64,000 bases of DNA from Pseudonocardia hierapolitana (GTDB lineage: Bacteria > Actinomycetota > Actinomycetes > Mycobacteriales > Pseudonocardiaceae): positions 2,666,001 through 2,730,000 of the forward strand of contig NZ_VIWU01000001.1 of NCBI RefSeq assembly GCF_007994075.1, written 5' to 3'. The notes beneath the pieces are model-generated. The model did not search any database. It was not told where the DNA came from and worked only from the letters and a program-made list of their open reading frames with translations. The translations under genes and the position numbers were made by a program. Shown piece after piece: positions 41,013-54,806 of the stretch. The first letter of the stretch is position 1; each line of letters opens with the position of its first letter.

Positions 41013-41217
41013 GGCGCAACGGTAGCCCGCCCACAACCGCGAGTCGGGTCTGAGTGCACGCAGATCGCGGTGCCGTCACGTCACAGCGTGCACCCGGTCC
41101 CGCCTGCGGTCCGACGTGCCCTGGCCCGGCAAGGACCAGTGGGTCCCCCTGGTGCGGAGCGCGCTCCGCAGCCAGGACAGTCGGGCCGAACCGGATGACC
41201 GGCCGGAGGTGGACGAC

Positions 41218-41847
41218 ATGCAGTACCTCGTCACGATGACGACCCACGTACCCCGAGGGGTGCCGGAGGAGGAGGTCGACGACGTCCGGGGCCGGGAAGC
41301 GGCCCGGTCCCGCGAGCTCGCTGCAGGCGGACACCTGATCCGGCTGTGGCGTCCACCGCTCGAGCCCGGCGAGTGGCGCTCCCTCGGGCTCTTCGCCGCG
41401 GACGACGGGGACCGGCTGGAGGAGGTGCTCGCCTCGATGCCGCTCCGGATCTGGCGCGATGACGAGGTCACCCCGCTCTCGCCACACCCGAACGACCCGC
41501 CGACGCCACCCGCTCGACGTGGTGCAGCGATGGAGTTCCTCACCACCTTCGCCCTCGACGTCCCCGACACCGTCGAGCCTCAGAGCATCGACGAGGCGCA
41601 AGCAGCCGAGGCACGCAGCGCCCGAGAGCTGGCCGCCCAGGGGTATCTCGTCCGGCTGTGGGGACTGCCCGGCCACGGGCGCGCGCTCGGCCTCTGGCAA
41701 GCCGACAGCGCCGGCGAGCTTCAGGCGATCCTCGGGACGCTCCCCCTCAGCCCATGGCTCGACATCGAGACCGTTCCGCTCACCCCACACCCCAACGACC
41801 CTGCGGTCATCGAGCTGAGCGCCGGTCGGTCGAGCCGTGCCCTCTGA
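41218..41847 (+). CDS. Tandem-duplicated muconolactone-isomerase-like protein
   Basis: A 209-residue protein made of two similar halves (about 1-95 and 103-195), each like muconolactone delta-isomerase (about 90-95 residues). Matching blocks are MQYLVTMTTHVP / MEFLTTFALDVP, SRELAAGGHLIRLWRPP / ARELAAQGYLVRLWGLP, and TPLSPHPNDPP / VPLTPHPNDPA. The single-domain enzyme isomerises muconolactone in the beta-ketoadipate pathway as a decamer; no other gene of that pathway is here, so the function may differ. GGAGG lies eight bases before the ATG at 41218. Confidence 0.75.
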   Translation: MQYLVTMTTHVPRGVPEEEVDDVRGREAARSRELAAGGHLIRLWRPPLEPGEWRSLGLFAADDGDRLEEVLASMPLRIWRDDEVTPLSPHPNDPPTPPARRGAAMEFLTTFALDVPDTVEPQSIDEAQAAEARSARELAAQGYLVRLWGLPGHGRALGLWQADSAGELQAILGTLPLSPWLDIETVPLTPHPNDPAVIELSAGRSSRAL

Positions 41848-41923: not shown

Positions 41924-42724
41924 TCATCGGCTCGAGCCGGTCAGCGGAATCCAGCTGCCGTGGTCGACGAGCCGTAGAGCGGACGAGTAGCCCGCCTGCT
42001 CGAAGGCCTCCGCGATGTCCGTCTCGGTCTCGGAGAAGTGGGCCCAACCGTCATAGTGCGCGGGCACGACGATCGGTGTGTTCAGGATCGCTGCGGCCGC
42101 GGCTGCGCGTACGGCATCCAGGGTGAGCGGACGCCCACCGAACTTCTCCGCCACGCGGGCCGCGCCGGCGAAGAGCACGGCTGCATCGATGCGCGGGAAT
42201 CTGCGCGCCACCTCGGCGACGACCCGGATCGAAGCGTTGTCGCCGCTGACGTAGACCGTGGGAAGCTCGGGGCCGGAGACGAGGAATCCGGTCACCTCGC
42301 AGTTGACGTTGCCGTTCTCGTCGCGGGGCGCGTCTTCCGGGCCGTGGACCGCGGGTACGGCCGTGATCGTGACGTCCCCGCCGTCGCCCGCGCGCACCGT
42401 GTGCGACGTCCACGGGCGCAATCCGATGGCCCGCGGACCCAGCTCCGCCGCGGCGGACGGGCACGTGAGCACCAACGGTGCGGCGACGGCGAACGCCCGG
42501 CCGCGGTCGTCGAGGTTGTCGGGGTGGGCGGCGTGGCTGACCAGTACCACGTCGACCGGTCCGAGCGCCTCTTCCTGGACGGCGGGCCCGGCGGTCTTGG
42601 TGAGATAACCGTGCGGACCCGGGGCGTCGAAGGTCGGGTCGACGACCATGCGAAGGCCGCCGAGGTCGAGCACCGTTGTCGGCCCGCCCAGCACCGTCGC
42701 CGCACATTCCTGTCGTGTCAGCAC
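41924..42724 (-). CDS. MBL-fold hydrolase, UlaG-like, with unusual metal motif
   Basis: A 266-residue MBL-fold protein of the UlaG/RNase Z-like side. The first metal motif reads SHAAHPDNLD (His64, His67, Asp69) where the canonical form is HxHxDH. A related subgroup uses SHDQHxDNLD, so the change may be partly a family trait, but the Asp after the first His is here Ala65. Later PAVHGPED, VYVSGDNAS and VPAHYDGWAH supply further ligands. Hydrolase or lactonase activity is possible, but uncertain. The gene follows the creatininase operon on the same strand, 34 bp after it. Confidence 0.7.
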   Translation of the reverse strand: MLTRQECAATVLGGPTTVLDLGGLRMVVDPTFDAPGPHGYLTKTAGPAVQEEALGPVDVVLVSHAAHPDNLDDRGRAFAVAAPLVLTCPSAAAELGPRAIGLRPWTSHTVRAGDGGDVTITAVPAVHGPEDAPRDENGNVNCEVTGFLVSGPELPTVYVSGDNASIRVVAEVARRFPRIDAAVLFAGAARVAEKFGGRPLTLDAVRAAAAAAILNTPIVVPAHYDGWAHFSETETDIAEAFEQAGYSSALRLVDHGSWIPLTGSSR

Positions 42725-42758: not shown

Positions 42759-43535
42759 TCAGGCCGGGGTGGTGAAGCGGTGGGCCTCGACGATCACCTC
42801 GGCGAGCCTGCCGACCGCCGCCTCGAAGATCGCCTTCCCGTGCTCGGCGGTGGCGCCGGTGGGGTCGCCGACGTGACCGTCGGGCCCGAAATCGGCGCTG
42901 GTCCAGCCGAACGACACCGGCTTGCCGAACCCGATGTGCTCGTAGTCCAGCAGCCCCTCCGGCACGTTGCGCCGCGCGTGCTCCATGTGCACGAGCTCGG
43001 GGCGCAGGTGCAGCATCAGCGACGTCTCGCCGTGGCCGCCGTGCACGCCCATCCCGTGTTCGTTCGCCGCCGACGTGCGCCCACCCTGGTCGGCGGGCAC
43101 CGACAGGTGCGCGAAGAACGTGCGCAGCCCGAACTTGATCCGGATCTCCCGGCACGCCACCTGGCCGAGCGCGGAGTTGCCCCCGTGCCCGTTGACGAAC
43201 AGCAGCCGGGTGATACCCGACGTCGAGAGCGACCGGCCGATGTCCACGAGGGTGCGCATCAGCGTGTCCCAGGACAGCCAGATCGTGCCCGCAGCCCAGT
43301 GGTGTTCGTCGGACTTCGTGTACGCGAGCCCGGGCAGCAGCACGACGGGCGCGCTGCCGGCCTCCGCGACGACGCGCACCGCCGCCTCGGCCGCCTCCGT
43401 GGCCGCGACGTAGTCGGTGGAGACCGGCAGGTGCGGGCCGTGCTGCTCGATCGCCCCGAGCGGGAGCACCGCAACGGTGTCCGGCGCGAGCGCCGCGATC
43501 TGCGGCGCCGTGAGGTCGACGAACCGCGGCACCAT
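42759..43535 (-). CDS. Creatininase-family amidohydrolase
   Basis: A 258-residue creatininase-fold enzyme. Metal ligands can be matched as Glu30, His32 and Asp41 (GAIEQHGPHLPVSTDY) and the GHGETSLML pair, with NGHGGN near the middle. The family opens cyclic amides such as creatinine, hydrolyses formamides in flavin synthesis, and includes MftE of mycofactocin maturation. Here it is the last gene of a coupled six-gene operon with an ABC importer, so ring opening of an imported N-heterocycle is the favoured inference. ATG overlaps the FAD oxidase stop by one base (TGATG). Confidence 0.82.
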   Translation of the reverse strand: MVPRFVDLTAPQIAALAPDTVAVLPLGAIEQHGPHLPVSTDYVAATEAAEAAVRVVAEAGSAPVVLLPGLAYTKSDEHHWAAGTIWLSWDTLMRTLVDIGRSLSTSGITRLLFVNGHGGNSALGQVACREIRIKFGLRTFFAHLSVPADQGGRTSAANEHGMGVHGGHGETSLMLHLRPELVHMEHARRNVPEGLLDYEHIGFGKPVSFGWTSADFGPDGHVGDPTGATAEHGKAIFEAAVGRLAEVIVEAHRFTTPA

Positions 43536-44872
43536 CAGCGCACCCCGATGTTCACACGCGAGTCGACGGGCGGAGCGGCCGTGAGCTTGCCCGGATTGAG
43601 CAGGCCCTTCGGGTCGGTCACCCGCGCGGTCTCGATGGCCCTCTCGACGTTGCGGTCCACGTACCACTGGTGCGGGGAGTGGACGCCCACGCCGAGCGCC
43701 TCCAGCTTCGGGATGCCGGCGAGCACGGCCTCCTCCCCCCGGTACTCGGCGACGATCATGGCGCCCGGCCCGTGGCCGAACAGCTCCAGGTGGAAGTGGA
43801 CGGGCCCCTCGTACACCTCGCGGACGGCGTCGGGGTCGTCCCAGAGCGGCGTGCCGCCCGACTCCATGTGGAAGTACGTGCGGCGCCGGTTGCCGCGTTG
43901 GAAGAACCAGACCGGGTGGTTGTAGGACATGCCCGAGAGGCGGTCGGTCTCGGCGTAGTCGGTGAGCGTGGCGACGTGTTCGCCGCCCGCCGCCATCCGG
44001 GCGGCCACCTCGTCCGCCGTGGACGCCTCGGCGATCACGCGCAGGCTGTACCGGGTGGGGTCGAGCTCCATCGGCGCCGTCAGCGTCGGCACCAGCGCGG
44101 GCTCGTCGGCCGAGGCCAGCCGCGGCAGCTGCGGCAGGTCCAGCAGTGTTCGGTGCACGGCCACCAGGTCGGCGTACGAGCCGAAGCTCCCGTAGACGGC
44201 CACCCAGTCGCGCGCCGGGTCGGTGCGGATCTCGACGTCGACCAGGATTCCGGTGACGCCGTAGGTGTGGATGTAGGGCGTGAGCTCCTCGCCGGTGACC
44301 CGGCGCATCGTGCCGCTGCCGTCCATGGGCGCGACCAGCGCGGAGACGACGAATCCGTCGCTCGTGGTCCGGTGCTCGATCGTGCCGGTGCCCGCGCTGC
44401 CGCCACCGATGAAACCGCCGATCGTGGAGGTCTTCGTGGACGGGTACATCCAGATGTCGAGCCCGGCCGCGCGGCCGACCGTGTCGATCGCGGTGAGCCG
44501 GGCGCCCGCGCCCGCGGTGATCGTGCCGCCGGGGTTCACGGTGATCGTGTCCAGCCCGCGCAGGTCGAGCAGGATGCCGCCGTCGAAGGGCGTGGCCTGC
44601 CCGTAGTTGCCGGTGCCCGCACCGCGCGGCGTGACCGGCACCTCGTGCTCGAAGGCCACCTGCAGCAGCTGCGGCACGTGCTCCGGCCGCGTCGGCCGCA
44701 CGACGGCGTCGGCGAGGTAGCGCCCGGGCGGCACCTTCTCCTGCAGCACGGGCGACATGCGCGACCAGTCCGAGGAGACCTTCAGGATCAGCGCCGGATC
44801 GGCGGAGACGGTGCCGGCGCCGAGACGCTCGATCTCGGCGACGGCCGCCGCGGTGCGCTCCGCGACGTTCAC
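43535..44872 (-). CDS. FAD-linked oxidase of the PCMH/VAO family
   Basis: A 445-residue flavoprotein. The PCMH FAD domain spans about 50-230 (VTPRGAGTGNYGQATP, STIGGFIGGGSAGTGTIEH); the C-terminal half is a divergent substrate domain ending in DPKGLLNPGKL, the usual last motif of this family. No Fe-S cysteines follow, so it should work as a single-subunit oxidase or dehydrogenase. Substrate unknown; it is embedded between a transporter and a creatininase, so oxidation of the imported compound before hydrolysis is likely. GTG 44872 overlaps the binding-protein stop by four bases. Confidence 0.82.
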   Translation of the reverse strand: MNVAERTAAAVAEIERLGAGTVSADPALILKVSSDWSRMSPVLQEKVPPGRYLADAVVRPTRPEHVPQLLQVAFEHEVPVTPRGAGTGNYGQATPFDGGILLDLRGLDTITVNPGGTITAGAGARLTAIDTVGRAAGLDIWMYPSTKTSTIGGFIGGGSAGTGTIEHRTTSDGFVVSALVAPMDGSGTMRRVTGEELTPYIHTYGVTGILVDVEIRTDPARDWVAVYGSFGSYADLVAVHRTLLDLPQLPRLASADEPALVPTLTAPMELDPTRYSLRVIAEASTADEVAARMAAGGEHVATLTDYAETDRLSGMSYNHPVWFFQRGNRRRTYFHMESGGTPLWDDPDAVREVYEGPVHFHLELFGHGPGAMIVAEYRGEEAVLAGIPKLEALGVGVHSPHQWYVDRNVERAIETARVTDPKGLLNPGKLTAAPPVDSRVNIGVR

Positions 44873-46044
44873 GGGCCCTCCATCTTGATGCTCGGGTCGA
44901 TGAACTCGTTGGTGTAGAGGCTCGCCGCGTCCGGAACCGAGGTGATCGTGCCCTGGGCCTGCAGGATGGGCCCGAACGTCGAGACGATCTCCTGCATGCG
45001 GGCCGGGTCGAACTGCCCGAACACCCCCGACGCCGGGTCGTTCTTCACGAAGCCCTGCTCCAGCTGCGCCTTCGCGGAGAACTCCGCGACGCCCGCCGTG
45101 TAGCTCCACCCGGTTTGGTACGCCTCGACGAGCTCCACGATGAGGCGGTTGGTCGGGCCGGGGTTCGCGAGGTAGTCGATCTGGGACCGCTGCATGATCG
45201 GCACCAGTTTCTGCAGGCACGGCCGCAGCTCCTCGAGCCTGTCGGCGCGCACCGCGACCGGCTCGGGATAGATCGAGTAGCCGTAGTTCGCGAGCGGCTC
45301 GTAGCCGACCGGACGGCCCCACTCCGCGATCTCGTTCTGGTAGACGTACGGCTCGGCCGTCGCGAAACCCTGCTGCAGGATCGTCGGGTCGGACACGAAC
45401 CGCGCGGGCGTGCCCTCGTAGCTCGTGTCGATCTGCCCCGGCTGGATGATGCCCTTGCCCGCCAGCAGCGCCGGGACGATGTCCCCGGAGGTGACCACCG
45501 CCGCGCCGGTGGCCGCGACCTCGCGGATCGTGGTCATCCCCGCGTGGCTCTCCGGGTCCCACATGAGGATCTGCGGGCTCACGGTCATCTGCGAGGCGAC
45601 GGCGACGGTCGGCTGGTCGGCCGCCGCCGCGATCGCCGTGTCGCTGTTGACCGCGCCGAGCGTGATCGACTCGTCCAGGTACATCAGCGCCGGCACCGGC
45701 TGGAACCCGACGTTCGGCCCGCCCGGCCGCACCTCGACGTCCACGCCGGTGTCCACGCCCTGCGCGACGAGCGAGCCGGTGACCGACTTGGCGCTCGTGT
45801 CGATCGTGTAGTCGGGGCCGACGAGCGAGTACATCGAGCCGTGCTCCGCCTCGGGCTGCCAGTCCTGCTGCAGCACCACCGTGGCCGGGCAGGCCCCGCT
45901 GAGGTCGAGCGGGCCACCCGCCTCCGCGGCGGGGGCGGCCGGCGTCGCGGGGCCGCCCACCTCCTCCCCACCGCCGCCGCACGCGGAGAGGACGAGCGCG
46001 GCGGCGAGGGCCGTCGCGGCGAGTGGGCCGGATCTGCGGATCAT
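44869..46044 (-). CDS. ABC transporter substrate-binding lipoprotein, NitT/TauT type
   Basis: A 391-residue lipoprotein: signal peptide to lipobox LSAC (Cys22), a Gly/Pro/Ala linker, then an NMT1/SsuA-like solute-binding domain (LQQDWQPEAEHG near the start of the mature lobe; GDIVPALLAGKGIIQPGQ; EPVAVRADRLEEL). Proteins of this class bind taurine, sulfonates, pyrimidines or aromatic acids. It delivers the solute to the permease encoded directly downstream in gene order on the minus strand (46069-46917 precedes it). The gap of 24 bp to the permease contains a GGAG before the ATG. Confidence 0.85.
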   Translation of the reverse strand: MIRRSGPLAATALAAALVLSACGGGGEEVGGPATPAAPAAEAGGPLDLSGACPATVVLQQDWQPEAEHGSMYSLVGPDYTIDTSAKSVTGSLVAQGVDTGVDVEVRPGGPNVGFQPVPALMYLDESITLGAVNSDTAIAAAADQPTVAVASQMTVSPQILMWDPESHAGMTTIREVAATGAAVVTSGDIVPALLAGKGIIQPGQIDTSYEGTPARFVSDPTILQQGFATAEPYVYQNEIAEWGRPVGYEPLANYGYSIYPEPVAVRADRLEELRPCLQKLVPIMQRSQIDYLANPGPTNRLIVELVEAYQTGWSYTAGVAEFSAKAQLEQGFVKNDPASGVFGQFDPARMQEIVSTFGPILQAQGTITSVPDAASLYTNEFIDPSIKMEGP

Positions 46045-46068
46045 GGGGAGCTCCAGTGGTGGGCGGGG

Positions 46069-46917
46069 TCAGCGGGCGACTCGGCCGTACCAGCGGCCGA
46101 CGACGGCCCGGTCGAGCACGGCGAAGATGGTGAAGATCACGACGCCGAAGAGCGCGGTGAGCGTGACGGAGGTGAGCAGCGCCTCCATCTGCAGGCGCTG
46201 GGTGTAGACGCGCAGCAGGCCCCCGATGCCGGGCGCGCCCTGCTGGAAGAAGTAGTCGCCGACGATCGCCCCGATCACCGAGAGGCCCGCCGCGTTGCGG
46301 AGCCCGGTGAAGATCGACGGCACCGCCGCGGGGAACTGCAGCTTCATGAGCCGCTGCCACCGGGTGGCCTTGTTCAGGGTGAACAGGTCGTGCGCGGCGG
46401 CACTGGCCGACTGCAACCCGAACAGCGTGTTGGCGACCATCGGGAACAGCGCGATGATCACACAGACCGCCACCCTCGCGAGGAAGGAGTACCCGAGCCA
46501 GATCCCGATCAGCGGCACCAGCGCGAGGATGGGGATCGTCTGGAGGATCACCGCGTACGGGTAGAGCACCTTCTCCGCCCACGCCCACTGCGACATCACC
46601 ACGGCGTAGGAGATGCCGAGCACCACCGCGATCGCGAGGCCGACGAGCGCCACCGCGAAGCTGCGGGCCAGCGCCTCCATCATCGGGCCCATCAGCTGCG
46701 GGTTGGAGAACGCCCCGCCGTACACCTCGTGCGGGGGCGGCAACAGCAACCGTTGCTTCGCCGGCAGCAGCAGGTAGGTGACCGCGTACCAGAGCGCCAC
46801 GAACCCGGCGAGCGCACCGATGATCGGGACGGAGCTGCGCAGGGCCGAACGCGCGACCGAACGCGGTGGTGCCGCCTGCGGGGCGGGCGCGTCGACCCGG
46901 GTCTCCACCGTGGTCAT
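46069..46917 (-). CDS. ABC transporter permease, NitT/TauT type
   Basis: A 282-residue inner-membrane permease with six helices. The EAA loop at about 185-205 (SAAAHDLFTLNKATRWQRL followed by LQFPAAVPSIFTGLR) contacts the ATPase. It completes a SsuBC-like importer with the ATPase gene it overlaps by four bases. Substrate is set by the binding protein; from the operon an N-heterocyclic or amide compound is inferred. The hydrophilic first 30 residues (APAPQAAPPRSVARSAL) are a cytoplasmic tail. Confidence 0.87.
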   Translation of the reverse strand: MTTVETRVDAPAPQAAPPRSVARSALRSSVPIIGALAGFVALWYAVTYLLLPAKQRLLLPPPHEVYGGAFSNPQLMGPMMEALARSFAVALVGLAIAVVLGISYAVVMSQWAWAEKVLYPYAVILQTIPILALVPLIGIWLGYSFLARVAVCVIIALFPMVANTLFGLQSASAAAHDLFTLNKATRWQRLMKLQFPAAVPSIFTGLRNAAGLSVIGAIVGDYFFQQGAPGIGGLLRVYTQRLQMEALLTSVTLTALFGVVIFTIFAVLDRAVVGRWYGRVAR

Positions 46918-47675
46918 GAGTGCTCCCCCAGCGCCGTGGAGACGCGGCCGGTGATCTCGCCGAACTCGGCCGAGTACCGCAGCTCGGGCGGACGCGGGTA
47001 GTCCCACGGGATCGGTATCTCCGCCACGATCCGGCCCGGTCGCCCGCTCATCACCAGCACGCGCGTGGACAGGTAGACCGCCTCCGAGACCGAGTGCGTG
47101 ATGAACAGGCCCGCGAACCGTTCGTGCCGGAAGATCCGCTGCAGCTCGGTCTGCATCTGGAGGCGGGTGATCTCGTCGAGCGCGCCGAACGGCTCGTCGA
47201 AGAGGGCGAGGTCCGGCTCCGCGACCAGCGCGCGTGCCAGCGACACGCGCATCCGCATTCCGCCCGAGAGCTGCCGCGGGTGCTGGCCCTCGAACCCGGA
47301 GAGACCGACGAGGTCGAGCGCGGCCCGGGCGCGCTCCCGCCGCTCCTCGCGCGGCACGCTGCGCAGCTCCCCGACCAGCTCCACATTGCGCAGGGCGCTG
47401 CGCCACTCCAGGAGCGTCGCGTCCTGGAAGACGTAGCTGGTGGCGCGCGCGGACACCTCGATCGTGCCGCTCGTGGTGGTCTCCAGCCCCGACGCGAGCC
47501 GCAGCAGGGTGGACTTGCCGCAGCCGGACGGTCCAACGACGGTGACGAACTCGCCCGCGTCGATCGACAGGCTCACGTCGGTGAGCGCGACGGTGCCCGT
47601 CGGGAACCGTTTCGTCACCCGTTCGAGCGCCAGCGTGCGCGTGCGCTCGGCGATATCGGTGGTCACGCTCGTCAC
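46914..47675 (-). CDS. ABC transporter ATP-binding protein, NitT/TauT type
   Basis: A 253-residue ATPase. Walker A GPSGCGKST, Q-loop VFQDATLLEW, signature LSGGMRMR, Walker B LALFDEPFGALD and switch ITHSVSEA are all canonical for SsuB/TauB-type importers. It overlaps both neighbours by four bases, placing it between the amidohydrolase and permease in one coupled operon. Its 3' end ELRYSAEFGEITGRV is typical of the subfamily. Confidence 0.88.
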   Translation of the reverse strand: MTSVTTDIAERTRTLALERVTKRFPTGTVALTDVSLSIDAGEFVTVVGPSGCGKSTLLRLASGLETTTSGTIEVSARATSYVFQDATLLEWRSALRNVELVGELRSVPREERRERARAALDLVGLSGFEGQHPRQLSGGMRMRVSLARALVAEPDLALFDEPFGALDEITRLQMQTELQRIFRHERFAGLFITHSVSEAVYLSTRVLVMSGRPGRIVAEIPIPWDYPRPPELRYSAEFGEITGRVSTALGEHS

Positions 47676-48934
47676 CTCACCTCGGTGAGCGGTCGGGGGG
47701 CAAGATCCGGGGCCGCCGCGGTGGGCAGGTCGAGCGCGCGGGCCACGCGGGTGTCGGCGAGCACGCGCCCGGCCGCCACCACCACCCGCGCGCCGACCGC
47801 GCCGGCCAGCACGTCACCCAGATCGACGTCCGGGACGAGCACGAGGTCGGCGGCGGCACCGGGTGCGCCGCCGGCCGGTGGCAGGCCCAGCACGGTGCGG
47901 GCGCCGGTCGTGACGGCGGCGAGCGCCTCCACCGGGCGCAGGTGCGCTGCGGTCATCAGCAGCGACGTGGTCTCGAACGGGTCGGCGCGGCCGGCCGGGT
48001 TGAACGGGTCGCGCAGGTTGTCGGCGCCCGCGGCGAGCGGGATGCCTGCGTCGAGGATCTGCCGCACGGCGGCGATGCCGCGCGGCGCCGCATGCGTGGC
48101 GTCCCGGCCCTGCAGGTACAGGTTCGTGATCGGCAGCGTGACGATGCCGAGGCCGGCCCGGGCGGCGAGCTCGAGCACCCGCGCAAGGCGCTCCGGCGGC
48201 AGCATGCCCAGGCGCACGCAGTGGCTCGCGGTGACCCGCTGCTGCAGCCCGCGGGCGATCACCTGCTCGGCGAGGTCGACGATGTCGAGGCCCGCGTCCG
48301 CCGGGGGGAGGCTCGTCTGCTCGTCGGCGTGCAGGTCCACCGGCAGGTCGAGCCGCTCGGCGAGGTCGAGCATGCGGGCGGTCTCGGCCCGCGGGTCGGG
48401 GGCGATGTGCGGGCAGCCGCCGATGACGTCGACCCCGCGGGCGGCGACATCCGCCAGCACAGCGGTCGGGGTCTGGTGCCCGGCGAGCATGCAGACCTGC
48501 AGCGTGACCCGGCCGCGCAGCCGCTCGCGGAGGGCGACCAGGGCGTCGACCCCGCGCATCGGGTCGCCGGAGCTCGGGACGTCGACGTGCGTACGGATCG
48601 TGGTGATCCCGTTCGCGACGTACCTCCGCACGGCCTGCAGGGCCCGCTCGGCGATGTCGGCGCCGTCGATCCCGGCCACGAGCGCCCGCCACTGCGCGAT
48701 CGCGGCGGGGAGGTCGTTGCCGGCGTCGGGGTCGATGCGGTGTGCCGTGAGTGCCTTGTCGAGGTGGGCGTGCGGCTCCACCGCGGAGGGCAGGACGCGC
48801 CAGCCGGTGGCGTCGAGGTCCACACCCGGGTCGCTCACCTGCACCGGGTCCGGCGTGATCCGACCGTCCACCACGTGCAGGTCGGTGACCGTGCCGTCGA
48901 GCAGCCGGACACCGCGCACGGAGCGCAGCTGCAC
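47672..48934 (-). CDS. Cytosine-deaminase-like amidohydrolase
   Basis: A 420-residue metal-dependent hydrolase of the CodA/COG0402 type. The barrel's metal motif is EPHAHLDKAL (His55, His57), followed by the DLHADEQ histidine and glutamate, TASHCV and GADNLRDPF with the catalytic Asp. All expected ligands are present. The family deaminates cytosine, isoguanine, creatinine or other cyclic amidines. As first gene of the ABC importer operon it probably acts on the imported compound or a product. GTG 48934 is the first start codon in frame; a leader of about 80 bases from the promoter at 49014-49043 precedes it. Confidence 0.82.
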   Translation of the reverse strand: MQLRSVRGVRLLDGTVTDLHVVDGRITPDPVQVSDPGVDLDATGWRVLPSAVEPHAHLDKALTAHRIDPDAGNDLPAAIAQWRALVAGIDGADIAERALQAVRRYVANGITTIRTHVDVPSSGDPMRGVDALVALRERLRGRVTLQVCMLAGHQTPTAVLADVAARGVDVIGGCPHIAPDPRAETARMLDLAERLDLPVDLHADEQTSLPPADAGLDIVDLAEQVIARGLQQRVTASHCVRLGMLPPERLARVLELAARAGLGIVTLPITNLYLQGRDATHAAPRGIAAVRQILDAGIPLAAGADNLRDPFNPAGRADPFETTSLLMTAAHLRPVEALAAVTTGARTVLGLPPAGGAPGAAADLVLVPDVDLGDVLAGAVGARVVVAAGRVLADTRVARALDLPTAAAPDLAPRPLTEVR

Positions 48935-49013
48935 GCCGGAAAGCTGCGCCGGATCATCCGGCGCCCCGATCGGGCGGGCCCGTTCCTCGTCGATAGCTTC
49001 CTCCTTGACCGGC

Positions 49014-49043
49014 TGTCTACCTGCAGTTTATTGATGTAGTCAA
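49014..49043 (-). promoter_or_regulatory. Promoter for the leftward importer/amidohydrolase operon
   Basis: On the minus strand TTGACT (49043-49038), an 18-bp spacer and TAGACA (49019-49014). The AT-rich stretch here (TTTATTGATG, AGTCAACATTGA) is the only such region within several kilobases, and contains a loose palindrome ATGT-AGTCA-ACAT (49035-49047) that could be the target of the divergent XRE protein. Confidence 0.5.
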
Positions 49044-49066
49044 CATTGACCGACGCTAGGGAGCCC

Positions 49067-49105
49067 ATGTTTCAGCGACGTTGCCGCGTTCGCGCGGCCG
49101 CGTGA
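49067..49105 (+). CDS. Possible 12-codon upstream open reading frame
   Basis: ATG 49067 opens a frame of 12 codons (MFQRRCRVRAAA) ending in TGA at 49103-49105. That stop overlaps the GTG start of the XRE gene in the pattern GTGA used by real coupled genes in this window. AGGGAG is three bases before the ATG, closer than usual. It may couple translation of the regulator, or be coincidence. Confidence 0.25.
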   Translation: MFQRRCRVRAAA

Positions 49106-49692
49106 AATCCGTGCCGACCGCGAGCGGGGCCGAGCGCGCGGCGGACGTCCGCCTCGGCCGGGCGATCCGGACCGCGCGCCACGACCGCGGGATGACCCTC
49201 GCACAGGTCGCGGCGGAGGCCGGGCTGTCCCAGCCGTTCCTGTCGCAGCTGGAGCTCGGGCGCACCCGTCCGTCCATGCGCTCACTGTTCCGGATCGCCA
49301 CCGCACTCGGCACCACCCAGCAGGCGCTTCTCGGCCGGGCCGCGGGCCCGCCGCCCGGCGAGGCCGTGCGCGGGGACGACGCCGCACTCGTCGAGATCGG
49401 GGCGGGCGGCGCCCGGCTGCTGCTCCACGACCCGGGTGGCGCGGACGTCACCGAGTTCGTCGGCTCCCCGCAGGAGTTCGGCGAGTTCTTCCGGCACGGG
49501 CGCCGCGAGCTGCTCTACGTCGCCCGCGGCACGGTGGAGGTCGAGCTCCGCGAGGACGGCACCAGCCGGTTCAGCACGCTGCAGGCCCGGGACTCGATCA
49601 CCTACCCTGGACACGTGGATCACCGGTTCCGCCAGGTCGGGCCGGAGACGTGCGTCATCGTACTGGTGCACTCGGGAGCACCCGATGCCTGA
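49102..49692 (+). CDS. XRE-family regulator with cupin domain
   Basis: A 196-residue regulator: XRE helix-turn-helix at about 18-75 (MTLAQVAAEAGLSQPFLSQLELG), then a cupin barrel (about 110-190; EFFRHGRRELLYVARGTVEVEL, SITYPGHVDHRF). Divergent from the six-gene uptake and catabolism operon and almost certainly its regulator, with the cupin sensing the substrate. GTG 49102 is the likely start; GTG 49111 and TTG 49081 are alternatives. Its end overlaps the flavoprotein gene by eight bases. Confidence 0.82.
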   Translation: MKSVPTASGAERAADVRLGRAIRTARHDRGMTLAQVAAEAGLSQPFLSQLELGRTRPSMRSLFRIATALGTTQQALLGRAAGPPPGEAVRGDDAALVEIGAGGARLLLHDPGGADVTEFVGSPQEFGEFFRHGRRELLYVARGTVEVELREDGTSRFSTLQARDSITYPGHVDHRFRQVGPETCVIVLVHSGAPDA

Positions 49693-50275
49693 GCAGCTCT
49701 CCGGCGACCCCCTCGTCGTGCTGGCCCGGTGGATGGCCGCGGCCGACCACCGGACGATGACCTTCGCGACGGCCGATGCCGACGGCGTCCCGCACGCCCG
49801 CAGCGTGCTCGTCACCGAGATCGATTCGGCGGGAGTGCGCTTCCACTCCTCCACGCCGACGACGAAGACCCGCGACCTCGCCGCCAACCCGCGCGCCTCC
49901 GCGGTCTTCTACTGGCCCGCGCACGAGCGGCAGGTGGTGCTGGAGGGGCGCGCCGCCGAGCTCGACGCCGAGACCTCGCGTGCCGGCTTCCGCACCCAGG
50001 CCCGGCAGCTGCAGCTCATCGCCTGGGCTTACCAAGCCCTCCTCCCGCAGCTCGAACCACCCCACTACGCCGTGCCGCCCGGCGCCGTCGAGAAGGCGTT
50101 CGACGCGGCGGCCGCCGACCCGGCCTCCCACGAGGCACCGCCGACCTGGACGACGATCCGGCTCGAACCCCACCGCGTCGACTTCTGGCAGGCGGGCACC
50201 GAGACCTCCCCGTCGACCAAGACCCGCTTCGTCCGGGACGGCGGGGGGTGGCGGCACTTCCCGGTCCTGCCCTGA
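49685..50275 (+). CDS. Pyridoxamine 5'-phosphate oxidase-like flavoprotein
   Basis: A 196-residue split-barrel FMN protein with the PNPOx layout: TFATADADGVPHARSVLV (FMN phosphate site), FHSSTPTTKTRDLAANPRASAVFYW, RQVVLEGRAAELDAE and a C-terminal TIRLEPHRVDFWQ, close to the PNPOx dimerisation motif. The substrate-binding RxHxR of true PdxH is only partly present, so a different amine or alcohol may be oxidised. It shares the operon of the XRE regulator and probably belongs to the same pathway as the divergent operon. Confidence 0.75.
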   Translation: MPEQLSGDPLVVLARWMAAADHRTMTFATADADGVPHARSVLVTEIDSAGVRFHSSTPTTKTRDLAANPRASAVFYWPAHERQVVLEGRAAELDAETSRAGFRTQARQLQLIAWAYQALLPQLEPPHYAVPPGAVEKAFDAAAADPASHEAPPTWTTIRLEPHRVDFWQAGTETSPSTKTRFVRDGGGWRHFPVLP

Positions 50276-50413: not shown

Positions 50414-50577
50414 GGTGGCGCCGCGCATTCTGCGGGGCCGCCCCTCAGAGCTCAAGGGCGCCTACGGCGTCGCTCCGCGATCGCTGCGCGACCCTTGACC
50501 TCCGAGCCTCTGCGACCCCTCCGGGCAGCACTACGCGGGCAGGCCAGGGGCCTGCCCGGAGGGCGCGCGGCGCCACC
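50414..50577 (+). repeat. Left long inverted repeat of the 732-bp element
   Basis: About 164 bp, roughly 88% identical to the reverse complement of 50983-51145. Long shared blocks include GGCGCCGCGCATT, GCGGGGCCGCCCCTC, AGCTCAAGGGCGCC, GCGACCCTTGACCT and GAGCCTCTGCG. A small internal hairpin (GGGCAGGCC-AGG-GGCCTGCCC, 50537-50557) is conserved in both copies with a changed loop. Confidence 0.75.
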
Positions 50578-50680
50578 GAAGGCGGTCCCACGGCCAAGAT
50601 CGAGGCTCCGGCGCGAAAACGGCCGAAAACGACACGAGAACCCACCGAACAGCCGATCATGCCGCGCGCAGCGCCGCCAA

Positions 50681-50761
50681 CAGCCGACTTCACACACCCA
50701 GTACGGACTTCACACAAGGCCGGCCTTGTGTGAAGTGGCCAATGGGTGTGTGAAGTGGCTG
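50681..50761. repeat. Nested palindrome at the centre of the element
   Basis: A 30-bp perfect palindrome (50707-50736; arm ACTTCACACAAGGCC) lies inside a second, longer inverted repeat (50681-50700 and 50743-50761, CAGCCGACTTCACACACCCA against its complement with one base missing). Both arms share ACTTCACACA. It could form a long cruciform or a double-stem RNA. Confidence 0.7.
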
Positions 50762-50982
50762 TCGGCGGGGGCGAGGGCCCTGGTGATCGGCCCGAGGAGT
50801 ACATCAGGTCTCCGCCGAGCCCGCGATGTGCTGATCGGAACGATCTGCGCCGCTCACGCACCCGTTCTCCGCCCACGCACCCCGTCGACCGGGCGCGTGG
50901 CCCGACACGGGGCGCGCGAGCGCACACCAGGTGCGCGACCAACGCGGAGACCCCCATCACGTACCTGTGGGACCGGCCTGCT

Positions 50983-51145
50983 GGCGGCGCCGCGCGCCCC
51001 ATCGGGCAGGCCCCCGGCCTGCCCGCACCGCATGCCCGAGGGGCCGCAGAGGCTCGCAGGTCAAGGGTCGCGAAGCGATCGCGCAGCGACGCCGAAGGCG
51101 CCCTTGAGCTGGGAGGGGCGGCCCCGCACAATGCGCGGCGCCGCC
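50983..51145 (-). repeat. Right long inverted repeat of the 732-bp element
   Basis: The partner of 50414-50577 on the opposite strand. Differences cluster in one spot (about 51028-51042) where the left copy has CCGGGCAGCACTACG and the right copy a different sequence of nearly the same length; elsewhere changes are single bases. The internal hairpin is GGGCAGGCC-CCC-GGCCTGCCC (51004-51024). Confidence 0.75.
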
Positions 51146-51288: not shown

Positions 51289-52581
51289 TCAAGCGCCGGG
51301 AGCTGGGCGGTGGGCGAGGAGGACGCGGAGGGCGTCCGCCACCTCCCGCTCCGACCGGCCCACGAGCTCCCCGTCCCGCACGACCACCCGGCCGCCCACG
51401 ACGACGTGCCTGGGCCGCCTGCCCGGGGCGGCCCACAGCAGCCCGGCGAGCGGGTCGGCGACGCCCGCGTCGGCGACGCCGGTGACGTCCCAGCAGGCGA
51501 GGTCGGCCGCGCAGCCCGGGTCGAGGCGGCCCAGCTCCGGGCGGCCCAGCCCGGTGGCCGAGCCTGCGGTCGCCCAGGTCAGGACCTCGCGAGCGGTCAC
51601 GGGGCGGCCGGCGAGCGGGGCCACCTGCATCGCCAGGCGGGCGTCGGCGAGGAGGTGGCCCGCGTCGTTGCTGCCGCCGCCGCTGGTGCCGAGCCCGACC
51701 GGGACGCCGGCATCGGCCAGCGCGGCCATCGGGGCCACGCCCCACCCCATCGGCACGTCACAACCGGGAGCGTGGGTGGCGGTCACTCCCGCCGCCGCGA
51801 CCTTGGCGATCTCCTCCCCGGTGACGTCGCACAGGTGCGCGATCGTGACGTCCGGGGCGAGCCAGCCCCACTCGTCCAGCAGGTCGAGGGGGCGGCGGCC
51901 GTAGCGCTGCGCCGCGACCTCGACGTCGACCTGCTCGTTCGCCTGCGTCCGGCGGCGCAGGCCGTGCCGGCGTGCGACCTCGCCGAGCAGCGCGAACGTC
52001 TCCTCCCCGTCGCTGTGCACGCCGGCCGGTCCGACCGCGACCTGCACCATCCCGGACGGGTCACCGCCGAGCGCCGCCGCGATCGCGTCCGCGGAGGCCG
52101 CGGCCTCCTGCGGGTCGTCGCGCGCGCTGCCGCGGACGAACACCAGCCGCGCGCCCAGCTCGCAGGCGGCCGCGGCGACCGCGCGGGCGATACCCACCCC
52201 GTCGCCGGTGCCGGCGGGCCAGGTGAGGTGGTGGTCGGCCACCGTCGTCACGCCGCACAGCAGCGCCTCCGCCAGCCCGGCCGCCGCGGCGGCGTGCGCC
52301 AGCTCGTCGTCGACGCCCACGGCCGCGTAGGCGGCGGCCATCCGGGGCAGCCAGTCACGCATCGGCACGCCGCGGGTCCCGGGCAGCGTCCGGAACGCGG
52401 TCTGCAGCAGGTGGTGGTGGGCGTTCACGAGGCCGGGTGTCACCACGCACCCCGACGCGTCGAGCACCTCACCGTCGACGGGGCCGGCGGCGACCTTCCC
52501 GTCGGGTCCGCAAGCGATCTCACCGCCCGGCAGCTCGGCGCTCCCCGTCCACACCAGCTCGGCACCCCGCACGATCAGCAC
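51289..52581 (-). CDS. Amidohydrolase of the 8-oxoguanine deaminase/AtzB type with altered metal ligands
   Basis: A 430-residue amidohydrolase closest in layout to 8-oxoguanine deaminase and hydroxyatrazine hydrolases. The first metal motif is intact (NAHHHLLQTAFRTLPG, His55 and His57), as is His249 (IAHLCDV). But the usual HLAE motif reads TQANE, with Gln213 replacing the metal His, and the metal Asp of VDGSASND is Ser300 in GTSGGGSND. The length and fold are otherwise normal and the frame is intact, so this looks like a changed active site and not a decayed gene. It starts ten bases after the MocR gene and is cotranscribed with it. Confidence 0.78.
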   Translation of the reverse strand: MLIVRGAELVWTGSAELPGGEIACGPDGKVAAGPVDGEVLDASGCVVTPGLVNAHHHLLQTAFRTLPGTRGVPMRDWLPRMAAAYAAVGVDDELAHAAAAAGLAEALLCGVTTVADHHLTWPAGTGDGVGIARAVAAAACELGARLVFVRGSARDDPQEAAASADAIAAALGGDPSGMVQVAVGPAGVHSDGEETFALLGEVARRHGLRRRTQANEQVDVEVAAQRYGRRPLDLLDEWGWLAPDVTIAHLCDVTGEEIAKVAAAGVTATHAPGCDVPMGWGVAPMAALADAGVPVGLGTSGGGSNDAGHLLADARLAMQVAPLAGRPVTAREVLTWATAGSATGLGRPELGRLDPGCAADLACWDVTGVADAGVADPLAGLLWAAPGRRPRHVVVGGRVVVRDGELVGRSEREVADALRVLLAHRPAPGA

Positions 52582-52591
52582 GGGCGCAGTT

Positions 52592-53956
52592 CTACTCCGT
52601 GCCGTCGTCGCCGGGAGCGCCCCGACCCAGCCCGGCGAGGACGTCGAGGGCGGTGGCGAGCGTGTCGAGCGCGGGCGTGGCCAGCGCCAGGCGCACCGCG
52701 CTCGGCGCGTGGCCTGCCCCCGCCGCGTACGACGCGGCGGGCGTCACCGCGATCCCCCGGCGCGCGGCCGCCGCGACGAACGTCTCCGCCCGCCACGGCG
52801 GCGGCAGCTCCCACCAGCAGTGGTAGGACGCCGGGTCGGCGCGCACCGCGAACCCGGCCAGCCGCTCGGCCACCATCGCCTGGCGCTCGGCCGCGTCCAC
52901 ACGCTTCGCCAGCTGGATCTCCGCCACCACGCCCTCGGTGATCCACCGGGTGGCGGCCTCGACGGCGAAGCTCGGGGCCAGCCACCCGCCTGCGCGGATC
53001 GCCGCGCGCACCCGCTGGTGGCGGGCCATCGGGGGCACGAGGAACCCGAGCGTGCAACCGGACGCGACCCGCTTGGACAGGCTGTCCACGACGACCGTGT
53101 GCTCCGGCGCGAACGCCGCGAGGGGTGGCGGGTCGTCGCGGAGGAAGGAGTAGACGCGGTCCTCGACCGCCGGGACGTCGTGCTCGACGAGCACATCGGC
53201 CAGCTCCCGCCTGCGCGCCACGGGCATGGTCACGCCGAGGGGGTTGTGCATCGTCGGCTGCACGAACACGGCGTCGAGCCGGCCGGCCGCACGCACCGCG
53301 TCGGGCTGCAGCCCCTCGGCGTCCACCGCGAGTGGCACCACCTCGACTCCGAGCCGCGCGGCGATCGTGCGCGTCACCGGGTAGGTGAGCGCCTCGACGC
53401 CGAGCCGCCCGCCGACGGGGACCAGCGCGCCGATCGCCGCCGCGATGGCCTGCCGCCCGTTGCCGGCGAACAGCAGCTGGTCCGGGCGTGGTGTCCAGCC
53501 CTCGCAGGCGAGGAGGTCGGCGGCCGCCCTTCGGGCCGCCTCCGTCCCGGCGGCGCTGCCCGGGGACAGCCCGGCTCGCAGCCCGTCGGGCCGCAACAGC
53601 CCGGACAGCGCGGGCGCCATCAGCGCGGCCTGCCCGTCGAGGATCGGGAAGCTCATCTCGAGGTCGACGATGCCCGAGCGGTGCTCCGCGAGCGCGGGGC
53701 CGGTTTGCAGCGGCGCGGCCCTCACGAACGTGCCGCGGCCCACCTCGCCGGTGACGAGCCCGCGGCGCGACAGCTCCCCGTAGACGCGAGACGCCGTGGA
53801 GACCGCGATGCCGCGGTCACGCGCGAACCGCCGCTGTGTGGGGAGCCGGTCGCCTGCGCGGAGCCGTCCTGCGGCGATGTCCGCGCCCACGGCATCGGCC
53901 AGTGCCCGGTAATCGTCCACGATTGCTCCGAGTTCATTGTCGCGCCTGAGATGCAT
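52592..53956 (-). CDS. MocR-type regulator (GntR helix-turn-helix fused to aminotransferase fold)
   Basis: A 454-residue protein: winged helix at about 10-80 (LPTQRRFARDRGIAVSTASRVYGEL) and a class I aminotransferase domain (about 95-445) with the PLP-lysine region VDSLSKRVASGCTLGF. MocR proteins use PLP or PLP adducts to sense an amine or vitamin and control nearby genes. The ATG at 53956 has a canonical promoter upstream. It is cotranscribed with the amidohydrolase downstream and divergent from an alpha/beta hydrolase gene, either of which could be its target. Confidence 0.85.
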   Translation of the reverse strand: MHLRRDNELGAIVDDYRALADAVGADIAAGRLRAGDRLPTQRRFARDRGIAVSTASRVYGELSRRGLVTGEVGRGTFVRAAPLQTGPALAEHRSGIVDLEMSFPILDGQAALMAPALSGLLRPDGLRAGLSPGSAAGTEAARRAAADLLACEGWTPRPDQLLFAGNGRQAIAAAIGALVPVGGRLGVEALTYPVTRTIAARLGVEVVPLAVDAEGLQPDAVRAAGRLDAVFVQPTMHNPLGVTMPVARRRELADVLVEHDVPAVEDRVYSFLRDDPPPLAAFAPEHTVVVDSLSKRVASGCTLGFLVPPMARHQRVRAAIRAGGWLAPSFAVEAATRWITEGVVAEIQLAKRVDAAERQAMVAERLAGFAVRADPASYHCWWELPPPWRAETFVAAAARRGIAVTPAASYAAGAGHAPSAVRLALATPALDTLATALDVLAGLGRGAPGDDGTE

Positions 53957-53968
53957 TGCCTTACGCGC

Positions 53969-53997
53969 TTTGTACCGACCAGACTCGGAGCGGTCAA
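53969..53997 (-). promoter_or_regulatory. Promoter of the MocR/amidohydrolase operon
   Basis: On the minus strand TTGACC (53997-53992), an exact 17-bp spacer and TACAAA (53974-53969), followed by a leader of about five bases to the MocR start at 53956. It is one of the cleanest -35/-10 pairs in the window. It shares the 58-bp gap with the divergent hydrolase gene. Confidence 0.6.
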
Positions 53998-54014
53998 ACC
54001 GAGAGGAGCAGGGG

Positions 54015-54806
54015 ATGCGCACCATCGCACTGGAACGGACCGTTCTCGCGTACGAGGACGTCGGACCGGACGGCGACATCCCGTTGCTCCTGGTGCACGG
54101 CCACCCGTTCGACCGGTCGATGTGGGAGCCGCAGTTGCGCCACTTCGGCGCGGACCGCCGGGTGATCGTGCCCGACCTGCGCGGCTACGGCGCCAGCGGC
54201 GGAGCGGTGCCCGAGTGGCCCGCGTTCGTCGACGACCTCGCCGCGCTCCTGGACGGCCTGCGGGTGCCCCGCGCCGTGGTCGCGGGCCTGTCCATGGGCG
54301 GGCAGATCGCACTCGAGCTCTGGGCGCGGCACCCCGGCCGGGTGGCCGGCCTGCTGATCGCGGACACGACGGCGGCCGGCGAGAGCGTCGAATCGCGGGC
54401 GGCACGGATCGCGCAGGCACAGCGTCTGCTGCGCGAGGGCATGGACCCGTACGCCGTCGAGAACCTCTACCTGATGGTCTCGCCGGACGCGCCGCCGGAG
54501 GTGGCCCGGCACGTGCTCGCGATGATGCGGTCGACGGACCCCGCCGGCGCCGCGGCCGCTCAGCGTGCCCGCGCCGACCGCCCGGACCGGCGCGCCGGCC
54601 TGGAAACGGTCACGGTGCCGACGGTCGTGGTCGTCGGCAGCGAGGACGCCTTCACCCCGGTCACTGACGCGCGCGTCATCGCCGACGGCGTTCCGGGCGC
54701 GGAGCTGGTGGTCGTGGACGGCGCGGCGCACATGCCGAACCTGGAACGTCCGGACGCGTTCAACGCCGCGCTGCAGCGACTCCTGGACCGCGTCCCCACA
54801 CATTGA
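54015..54806 (+). CDS. Alpha/beta hydrolase
   Basis: A 263-residue hydrolase. LLLVHGHPFDRSMWEPQL supplies the oxyanion hole, GLSMGGQIALEL the nucleophile serine, VVVVGSEDAFTP the acid and GAAHMPNLERP the histidine. The triad is complete. This group includes carboxylesterases, lactonases such as 3-oxoadipate enol-lactonase, and haloperoxidase-like enzymes; substrate unknown. AGGAG is seven bases before the ATG. Divergent from the MocR gene, which may control it. Confidence 0.84.
   Translation: MRTIALERTVLAYEDVGPDGDIPLLLVHGHPFDRSMWEPQLRHFGADRRVIVPDLRGYGASGGAVPEWPAFVDDLAALLDGLRVPRAVVAGLSMGGQIALELWARHPGRVAGLLIADTTAAGESVESRAARIAQAQRLLREGMDPYAVENLYLMVSPDAPPEVARHVLAMMRSTDPAGAAAAQRARADRPDRRAGLETVTVPTVVVVGSEDAFTPVTDARVIADGVPGAELVVVDGAAHMPNLERPDAFNAALQRLLDRVPTH

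What the first reader, a model, noticed from the sequence alone, without database searches (positions are those of the whole stretch)
42759..50275. Uncharacterised uptake and degradation cluster: importer, two amidohydrolase-type enzymes and two flavoproteins under an XRE-cupin
Seen: six leftward genes (47672 to 42759) whose ends overlap by 1-4 bases at five of the junctions or sit within 24 bp, encoding a CodA-like amidohydrolase, a complete NitT/TauT ABC importer, a PCMH FAD oxidase and a creatininase. They diverge from an XRE-cupin regulator and a PNPOx-like flavoprotein. Family knowledge: creatininases and CodA-type enzymes attack cyclic amides and amidines. Inference: this is one pathway that imports a nitrogen heterocycle or cyclic amide, oxidises it and opens it. 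I know of no described pathway with this set.
Basis: partly seen in the sequence, partly recalled or inferred. Interest (0 to 1): 0.75.

Follow-up and report, generated by a model that had tools for sequence, protein, structure and literature searches.

The report
Conserved heterocycle-degrading gene cluster, probably pterins
A soil bacterium related to Pseudonocardia carries a widely shared set of genes that seems to import and break open a nitrogen-ring compound, perhaps a pterin of the kind found in folate vitamins, whose breakdown by bacteria is only partly understood.

Summary
Six leftward genes (CodA-like amidohydrolase, three-part ABC importer, PCMH FAD enzyme, creatininase-family hydrolase) diverge from an XRE-cupin regulator and a PNPOx-like flavoprotein. 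They are one module: all six lie together in 16 of 30 named loci fetched with the binding protein, in eight named actinobacterial genera. A palindrome at 49028-49046 recurs in many kin loci.

Importer + CodA-like + FAD enzyme + creatininase also occur together on rhizobial and other proteobacterial plasmids. There the FAD enzyme is a close relative (E 1.7e-207) of PDB 6v42, titled 'flavin oxygenase ... involved in folate catabolism'. The binding protein folds like thiamine-pyrimidine-binding proteins. The CodA-like enzyme keeps the catalytic residues of cytosine deaminase but not its cytosine-contact ones.

Best reading: import, deamination, flavin oxygenation and amide cleavage of a pterin-type heterocycle (0.42). 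The linkage is well supported; the substrate is inferred. Purine-like rings and thiamine pyrimidine remain possible; some neighbourhoods point to purines. No paper on this set was found in the held library. New variant of a known kind.

The parts
47672..48934 (-). CodA-like amidohydrolase (420 aa); probable deaminase of an amino heteroaromatic
   Evidence: Amidohydro_3; best NCBIfam PRK07583 190 bits, below its cut-off of 403; catalytic residues kept, cytosine-contact residues changed in 12 of 12 cluster proteins aligned
46914..47675 (-). ABC importer ATPase
   Evidence: ABC_tran 7e-29; closest to taurine and sulfonate ATPase models, below cut-off
46069..46917 (-). ABC importer permease
   Evidence: BPD_transp_1
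44869..46044 (-). solute-binding protein of the importer (lipoprotein by reading)
43535..44872 (-). PCMH-type FAD enzyme, proposed flavin oxygenase
42759..43535 (-). creatininase-family metal amidase
   Evidence: PF02633 232 bits; below the cut-offs of the creatininase, MftE, IolN and ArfB equivalogs
49028..49046 (.). probable operator: palindrome ATGTTGA-n5-TCAACAT (2 mismatches) between the divergent genes
   Evidence: only match at <=3 mismatches in the window, 0.19 expected, but 17 of 100 shuffles had one or more; the weight lies in its recurrence at <=2 mismatches in 16 of 36 kin loci scanned, two of them repeat places
49081..49692 (+). XRE-cupin regulator
   Evidence: HTH_3 + Cupin_2; a match in 16 of 16 named loci with the six-gene core
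49685..50275 (+). PNPOx-like split-barrel flavoprotein
   Evidence: PNPOx_N 66 bits; a match in 13 of 16 core loci
51289..52581 (-).
   Evidence: PDB 3ls9 (TrzN) E 2.7e-62; in 11 of 16 core loci; in 5 of 5 genomes holding it (own included) of a class-wide sample of 394, the FAD gene lies under 11 kb away

Best explanation
The locus is a regulated uptake-and-degradation module for an amino-substituted nitrogen heteroaromatic, most likely a pterin (a folate-type pteridine or its breakdown product). Proposed order: (1) the ABC importer brings the ring in; (2) the CodA-like amidohydrolase removes the exocyclic amino group (pterin to lumazine type); (3) the PCMH FAD enzyme, perhaps fed electrons by a split-barrel flavin protein, oxygenates the ring; (4) the creatininase-family enzyme, and in some kin an amidase, hydrolyse the exposed cyclic or acyclic amide, with NH3 released; (5) the XRE-cupin protein controls the genes from the ATGTTGA-n5-TCAACAT site. 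Shown here: gene set, linkage, families, folds, conserved residues, recurrence of the palindrome. Inferred: substrate, step order, every reaction, the regulator-site pairing.
For: Linkage: 16 of 30 named loci hold all six core genes; 9 of 9 genomes with the FAD gene among 60 have it beside the binding-protein gene. Same set in Proteobacteria: importer + 'cytosine deaminase' or amidohydrolase + FAD oxidoreductase + creatininase in Nitratireductor, Rhizobium (2), Agrobacterium, a Comamonadaceae bacterium and Pseudooceanicola; Ruegeria has the three enzymes beside a longer, differently placed binding protein. The Agrobacterium FAD protein matches 6v42 at E 1.7e-207 over nearly its whole length; 6v42 is titled 'flavin oxygenase with cofactor bound involved in folate catabolism'. 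N318, H319, H361, E363 and H401 of the window protein are invariant in 14 of 14 aligned across both phyla. FMN-reductase-type proteins stand directly after the FAD gene in four proteobacterial loci (fold family of two of them tested). The binding protein folds like FAMP- and thiamin-binding proteins. CodA-like: catalytic His/Glu/Asp kept; the Gln, second Asp and Trp of E. coli CodA absent in 12 of 12. Folate-type folds recur in kin clusters: MTHFR-like in 13 of 47 kin loci and FTCD_C in 3, all Microbacterium. A pterin deaminase gene of V. paradoxus genomes has an 'endoribonuclease' gene downstream (PMC9513972), which I read as Rid-type; Rid genes are annotated in 7 of the 8 FAD-gene neighbourhoods opened in Proteobacteria.
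Against: The folate label rests on a PDB title; no paper was found. Window and proteobacterial FAD enzymes share only 27-29% identity. The binding-protein profile matches no PDB sequence convincingly. The MTHFR-like protein has no match in this genome (that call had no positive control). I saw no carboxypeptidase G or p-aminobenzoate gene among the recurrent neighbours, but did not search for them. Formamidase-family and FTCD_C neighbours would fit better a ring with an N-CH-N unit, which free pterin lacks. Some neighbourhoods look purine-like: the Aminobacter CodA-like relative (38% over 70%) stands near urate hydroxylase PuuD, the Nitratireductor cluster near ureidoglycolate lyase and a hydantoinase B/oxoprolinase gene, and one Rhizobium cluster next to xanthine-dehydrogenase-family genes. 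The TrzN-like enzyme is not among the annotated genes of the proteobacterial clusters. No Rfam family reached threshold in 5 sources.
Confidence: 0.42

Rival explanations
1. The substrate is another N-heterocycle with an N-CH-N unit (a purine, imidazole or related ring); the carbon between the nitrogens leaves as formamide or a formimino group, which in some kin FTCD_C and MTHFR-like proteins pass to tetrahydrofolate.
For: FTCD_C and MTHFR-like neighbours in kin; formamidase-family gene in kin; TrzN-like enzyme matches the 8-oxoguanine deaminase model at 263 bits, cut-off 532; purine-type genes near related genes: urate hydroxylase PuuD in Aminobacter, ureidoglycolate lyase in Nitratireductor, xanthine-dehydrogenase-family genes in one Rhizobium; luciferase-type oxygenase genes in related loci (by reading, by Pfam).
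Against: The C1 genes are absent from the window's cluster and from most kin; the scores of the window's enzymes lie below the equivalog cut-offs shown for purine and histidine enzymes; the nearest solved FAD enzyme is labelled for folate.
Confidence: 0.28
2. The substrate is the pyrimidine half of thiamine (HMP, aminomethyl or formylaminomethyl pyrimidine). The CodA-like enzyme removes the 4-amino group, the FAD enzyme oxygenates the ring, the creatininase-like enzyme opens it, and the formamidase/acetamidase-family enzyme of some kin clusters clears the amide from the 2-methyl amidine unit.
For: Best folds of the binding protein are FAMP-binding 3ix1 and thiamin-binding 4nmy. FmdA_AmdA-family genes stand next to the same palindrome in L035, L048 and L050. 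CodA-type enzymes act on 4-aminopyrimidines (established knowledge).
Against: The nearest solved FAD enzyme is labelled for folate, not thiamine. Cytosine-contact residues of CodA are lost. The shared fold (18% and 15% identity) does not fix the ligand. No TPP riboswitch reached threshold in 5 sources.
Confidence: 0.2
3. Creatinine/N-methylhydantoin utilisation: a creatinine deaminase-like CodA enzyme and a creatininase.
For: Family names of two enzymes.
Against: Creatininase equivalog score 96.6 against cut-off 235; the FAD enzyme, conserved with its partners, has no step in that route as I know it.
Confidence: 0.05
4. Sulfonate or nitrate-type uptake locus with unrelated enzymes next to it.
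For: ATPase and permease score best against taurine/sulfonate/SaoP-type models, all below cut-off.
Confidence: 0.04

Closest known systems
Proteobacterial clusters holding the 6v42-type FAD enzyme (Rhizobium, Agrobacterium, Nitratireductor, Comamonadaceae, Pseudooceanicola, Ruegeria); 6v42 titled as folate catabolism
   Same: Importer, CodA-like enzyme scoring best against PRK07583, PCMH FAD enzyme and creatininase-family enzyme in one cluster; invariant N-H, H, E, H residues
   Different: LysR, other or no annotated regulator where looked at, instead of XRE-cupin; flavodoxin-fold reductase and Rid genes instead of PNPOx; no TrzN-like gene annotated; FAD enzyme 27-29%, CodA-like 27-33% identical; creatininase 41% in the one pair compared
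Pterin deaminase / carboxypeptidase G route of folate breakdown (Variovorax sp. F1, PMC9513972; abstract, passages and sections 8 and 11 seen)
   Same: Deamination of the pteridine ring by a hydrolytic deaminase as an early step; an endoribonuclease gene downstream of the deaminase gene in V. paradoxus
   Different: The sections read stop at deaminopteroate; 'transporter', 'oxygenase', 'creatininase' and 'gene cluster' do not occur in its main text; I had no sequence of that enzyme to compare
Rut pyrimidine pathway (RutA-G, recalled)
   Same: Logic: flavin oxygenase plus flavin reductase, then amide hydrolysis and, in kin, Rid proteins; a flavin reductase matching the RutF model at 73 bits (cut-off 255) in one kin cluster
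   Different: PCMH FAD enzyme instead of an LLM oxygenase; deaminase and creatininase present; ABC importer instead of a permease
TrzN triazine hydrolase
   Same: Closest solved relative of the 51289-52581 product, E 2.7e-62; catalytic Glu kept
   Different: Gln at the position of one metal His and Ser at that of Thr in all readable orthologues
ThiY / NMT1-THI5 solute-binding proteins
   Same: Fold
   Different: No Pfam NMT1 match by sequence; ligand unknown

Membership tests
6v42-type flavin oxygenase of folate catabolism | full-length homology and same fold | tested here: met
6v42-type flavin oxygenase of folate catabolism | conserved N-H, H, E, H set shared with proteobacterial members | tested here: met
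   invariant in 14 of 14; functional role of these residues not known
6v42-type flavin oxygenase of folate catabolism | acts on a folate or pterin with O2 | not testable with these tools
   needs assay; 6v42 activity known here from its title only
Cytosine deaminase (CodA) | catalytic HxH, H-x2-E, H, D | tested here: met
   12 of 12 aligned cluster proteins
Cytosine deaminase (CodA) | cytosine-contact Gln156, Asp314 and Trp319 (crystal numbering and role recalled) | tested here: not met
   absent in 12 of 12; Asp to Asn and Trp to Phe throughout
Cytosine deaminase PRK07583 equivalog | score over 403 bits | tested here: not met
   window 190; Agrobacterium 652, Pseudooceanicola 569, Nitratireductor 411 pass; Comamonadaceae 298 and Ruegeria 269 do not
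Creatininase (creatinine amidohydrolase, TIGR04448) | score over 235 bits | tested here: not met
   96.6 bits; the Pfam superfamily PF02633 is met at 232 bits
MftE, IolN, ArfB (other creatininase-fold equivalogs) | score over each cut-off | tested here: not met
   131.8/172, 43.9/245, 28.4/180
NMT1/THI5-type solute-binding protein | fold | tested here: met
NMT1/THI5-type solute-binding protein | Pfam NMT1 sequence match | tested here: not met
   no family at E 0.001
TrzN triazine hydrolase | metal ligand His238 (numbering recalled) | tested here: not met
   Gln in 23 of 23 sequences readable there, window included (22 distinct places)
TrzN triazine hydrolase | catalytic Glu241 (numbering recalled) | tested here: met
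   Glu in the same 23 of 23
Rut pathway | RutA-type LLM oxygenase in the cluster | tested here: not met
   no LLM family among the ten proteins scanned; luciferase-type genes occur in some related loci
Glycolate oxidase GlcD | score over 567.9 bits | tested here: not met
   40.8 bits

The most novel reading that the evidence does not exclude
This is the actinobacterial gene set for degradation of the pteridine ring: a pterin importer, a CodA-like pterin deaminase, a flavin oxygenase and a creatininase-fold ring opener, joined in some kin by folate-fold proteins (an MTHFR-like protein that seems to lack the usual catalytic Glu, and FTCD_C) and in most by a TrzN-like enzyme with a rewired metal site that works on the same pathway. 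Natural relatives of the atrazine hydrolase TrzN would then be enzymes of vitamin-ring breakdown.
Probability: 0.25. Interest if true: 0.75.

Novelty: new variant of a known kind. Interest (0 to 1): 0.52.

Why it matters
In the one bacterial folate-breakdown paper that I could open, the route is followed as far as deaminated pteroate, and its authors ask whether and how other bacteria decompose such degradants (PMC9513972). If the reading is right, this cluster, spread over Actinobacteria and plasmid-borne in rhizobia, supplies candidate genes for uptake and opening of the pterin ring, each testable with purified protein. It would also give natural context to three poorly understood enzyme groups: PRK07583-type 'cytosine deaminases' that lack the cytosine contacts, creatininase-family hydrolases of unknown substrate, and TrzN-like amidohydrolases with a changed metal site.

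Tried and rejected
Creatinine, sulfonate and cytosine routes were considered and ranked low. The MBL-fold gene 41924-42724 and the MIase-domain gene 41116-41847 next to the operon were tested as possible members and appear in none of 47 kin loci; the GntR-type gene 52592-54079 appears only in L095 (at the score limits of that script). Rfam search of the window and four kin loci: no family at gathering score. Orthologues of the window's FAD and binding proteins were sought on plasmids: none at E 1e-25 for the FAD enzyme, one distant binding protein in Nitratireductor, which opened the proteobacterial comparison. Of three Aminobacter records with a CodA-like match one was opened; it holds no annotated importer or creatininase beside the gene but a urate hydroxylase, a Rid and an amidase gene. 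The binding-protein profile against PDB sequences gave only two weak N-terminal matches. I first guessed the palindrome GTCAAnnTTGAC as operator; at up to 2 mismatches it is hardly above chance in the window (16 against 9.5, 4 of 100 shuffles as many), and the longer ATGTTGA-n5-TCAACAT, read off the kin promoters, replaced it. The pattern was loosened at two letters to fit the window's site, so its zero mismatches there are by construction; five other genomic places match at 2 mismatches. Literature: 6v42, gene set, folate or pterin catabolism, Arad3529 (59), TrzN origin (40); judged from listings, only PMC9513972 was opened. In the fold lists, families not listed are not excluded. The Klebsiella record (L105) shows importer, FAD gene and Rid gene but no annotated deaminase or creatininase beside them (that gene table is incomplete).

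Rows dropped or partial: of the 30 named loci, 14 lack the full six-gene core. L034, L038 and L046 are cut by contig ends inside the cluster. L047 lacks the FAD and creatininase genes although 5.7 kb follow the binding-protein gene. The other ten are more distant binding-protein relatives (35-44% identity). L086 and L087 repeat the places of L050 and L048, and L097 that of L033 (inferred from equal contig lengths and identities). In the TrzN-like motif count L032 is truncated and was left out. In some searches only 4 candidates per genome were scored, so 10 and 5 of 394 are lower bounds. Of 135 plasmid records with an FAD match eight were opened.

Full report
1. What is there. The window lies in an 8.86 Mb single-contig genome; the closest named relatives of its binding protein are from Pseudonocardia (86-87% identity). 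Each Pfam assignment was confirmed except for the binding protein, which matches no family at E 0.001.

2. One module, larger than described. Using the binding protein as probe, 30 named loci were fetched. All six core genes occur together in 16 of 30, within 6.0-10.2 kb, in eight named genera: Pseudonocardia, Ruania, Microbacterium, Paraoerskovia, Promicromonospora, Actinomycetospora, Phytoactinopolyspora and Rhodococcus. All 16 have an XRE-cupin match in the locus, 13 a PNPOx-like one and 11 the TrzN-like gene at 250 bits or more; L032 has only a broken TrzN-like gene, L040 ends 1.3 kb beyond PNPOx, and L035, L048 and L050 show none. Of the 14 loci without the full core, three are cut by contig ends, one (L047) lacks the FAD and creatininase genes although 5.7 kb follow, and ten are more distant relatives of the binding protein; four of those ten (L053, L054, L059, L061) keep a creatininase gene and three of these a CodA-like gene. 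Because this sample was drawn with the binding protein, a second test started from other genes. Among 60 relatives, own genome included, the FAD gene (E <= 1e-60) occurs in 9, each time within about 1.1 kb of a binding-protein gene. In a class-wide draw of 394 genomes, own included and with only 4 candidates scored per genome, the FAD gene occurs in 10 and the TrzN-like gene (E <= 1e-90) in 5; in all 5 (4 without the own genome) the two lie on one contig less than 11 kb apart. Nine of the 10 FAD loci also show a binding-protein gene in the stretch fetched; L093, cut by its contig end, does not. Exceptions: G008 keeps the TrzN-like gene, pieces of PNPOx and creatininase, a third amidohydrolase and the MTHFR-like gene but no matching CodA-like, FAD or binding-protein gene, which looks like an internal deletion (L100); G026 has pieces of the TrzN-like and binding-protein genes; G012 has a CodA-like and a binding-protein gene side by side but no FAD gene at that threshold; G047 holds a second FAD gene beside a different NMT1-type importer (L101).

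3. Optional partners. In 47 kin loci scanned (three are repeats), 13 have an MTHFR-like protein with an N-terminal MTHFR_C-type domain and 10 an FNR/ferredoxin reductase; others have a third amidohydrolase, Flavin_Reduct proteins or an acetamidase/formamidase-family enzyme, and Ruania an AtzH-amidase fusion. FTCD_C genes occur in three, all Microbacterium. The MTHFR-like proteins share CPKxM-x-GPCGG and RDRN-type motifs, but the segment where MTHFR carries its catalytic Glu reads GMPA, GFPA or similar (position of the Glu recalled). PNPOx is missing from five examined core loci (L039, L041, L051, L088, L098); three of these (L039, L041, L088) have a Flavin_Reduct match instead, L098 only a weak one, L051 none. 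I take this as weak evidence that PNPOx supplies reduced flavin; it is an inference.

4. Regulation. The intergenic region between the XRE-cupin and CodA-like genes holds the palindrome ATGTTGA-n5-TCAACAT (49028-49046, 2 mismatches). In the window it is the only match at up to 3 mismatches, but 17 of 100 shuffles have one too, so the window alone proves little. In the whole genome, the pattern loosened to fit this site matches five other places at 2 mismatches, against one forward and one reverse match of the reversed control. The weight lies in recurrence: at up to 2 mismatches it occurs in 16 of 36 kin loci scanned, two of these being repeat places; the pattern was read off some of these loci. 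Twenty loci show none, among them close relatives (L033, L049). In L035 a perfect copy lies between the flavin-reductase/formamidase pair and the third-amidohydrolase/MTHFR pair, and in L048 and L050 copies lie at the start of the cupin/formamidase pair, which ties these partners to the same control.

5. The same set in Proteobacteria. On plasmids, creatininase, CodA-like deaminase, FAD oxidoreductase and a three-part importer lie together in Nitratireductor, two Rhizobium records, Agrobacterium, a Comamonadaceae bacterium and Pseudooceanicola; Ruegeria has the three enzymes with a longer binding protein and no importer ATPase or permease annotated beside them; Klebsiella has importer, FAD and Rid genes only. 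These eight were opened, of 135 plasmid records with an FAD match. The CodA-like proteins tested (Nitratireductor, Agrobacterium, Comamonadaceae, Pseudooceanicola, Ruegeria) score best against PRK07583, as the window's does.

7. Mechanism. The set reads as import, deamination, flavin-dependent oxygenation, amide hydrolysis. This is the logic of the Rut pyrimidine pathway (recalled) with a different oxygenase. The identity of the ring is the weak point. For pterin: the 6v42 title, the loss of cytosine contacts in the deaminase, the folate-type folds among partners, the pyrimidine-binding fold of the binding protein, and an endoribonuclease (Rid-type, my reading) gene downstream of pterin deaminase genes in V. 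paradoxus (PMC9513972; abstract, passages, sections 8 and 11 seen). For a purine-like or other N-CH-N ring: formamidase family, FTCD_C, and purine-type genes near related genes in Aminobacter, Nitratireductor and one Rhizobium. For thiamine pyrimidine: the same binding fold and the acetamidase family. I give 0.42, 0.28 and 0.20.

8. Novelty. The kind (heterocycle catabolic operon with NMT1-type importer) is known, and one protein of the proteobacterial version has a solved structure. I found no description of the pathway in the held library, which omits most subscription journals, so a published account may exist. The actinobacterial version with PNPOx, XRE-cupin control and a TrzN-like enzyme is a new variant.

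Noticed in passing
window 50414-51145: Between the PNPOx-like and TrzN-like genes lies a dispersed repeat element of about 0.73 kb with 111-nt inverted arms (91% complementary); at least 40 arm copies in the genome (40 of 102 candidates were scored, all matched), several as inverted pairs about 570-620 bp apart; interior conserved in 5 of 6 pairs aligned. It looks like a non-autonomous mobile or REP-type element; target duplications were not examined.
   Followed up: partly
window 48992-48994: The CodA-like frame may start at an ATC codon 5 bases after AAGGAGG, 20 codons upstream of the listed GTG; the same Shine-Dalgarno and ATC occur in L040 and L095.
   Followed up: no
G000, five loci other than the window (L002-L006): The genome holds five further places matching the creatininase family (one of them covering only 57 profile positions), so this family may have several roles here.
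   Followed up: no
L053 and L054: Acidimicrobiales relatives of the importer sit with CodA-like and creatininase genes and with genes that read as UbiD-like and UbiX-like decarboxylases and luciferase-type oxygenases (these names are by reading, only the related L093 luciferase-type gene was run against Pfam).
   Followed up: partly
L101 10129-12094: A second FAD-enzyme copy (70% identity) in genome G047 sits beside an NMT1-type binding protein and ATPase with two palindromes at 2 mismatches, suggesting importer exchange.
   Followed up: partly
window 41116-41847: A protein with two muconolactone-isomerase stretches (PF02426) next to the operon, not conserved with it.
   Followed up: no
window 52592-54079: A GntR-type regulator gene (MocR-like by reading) lies 10 bases upstream of the TrzN-like gene on the same strand; among the kin loci found only in L095.
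   Followed up: no
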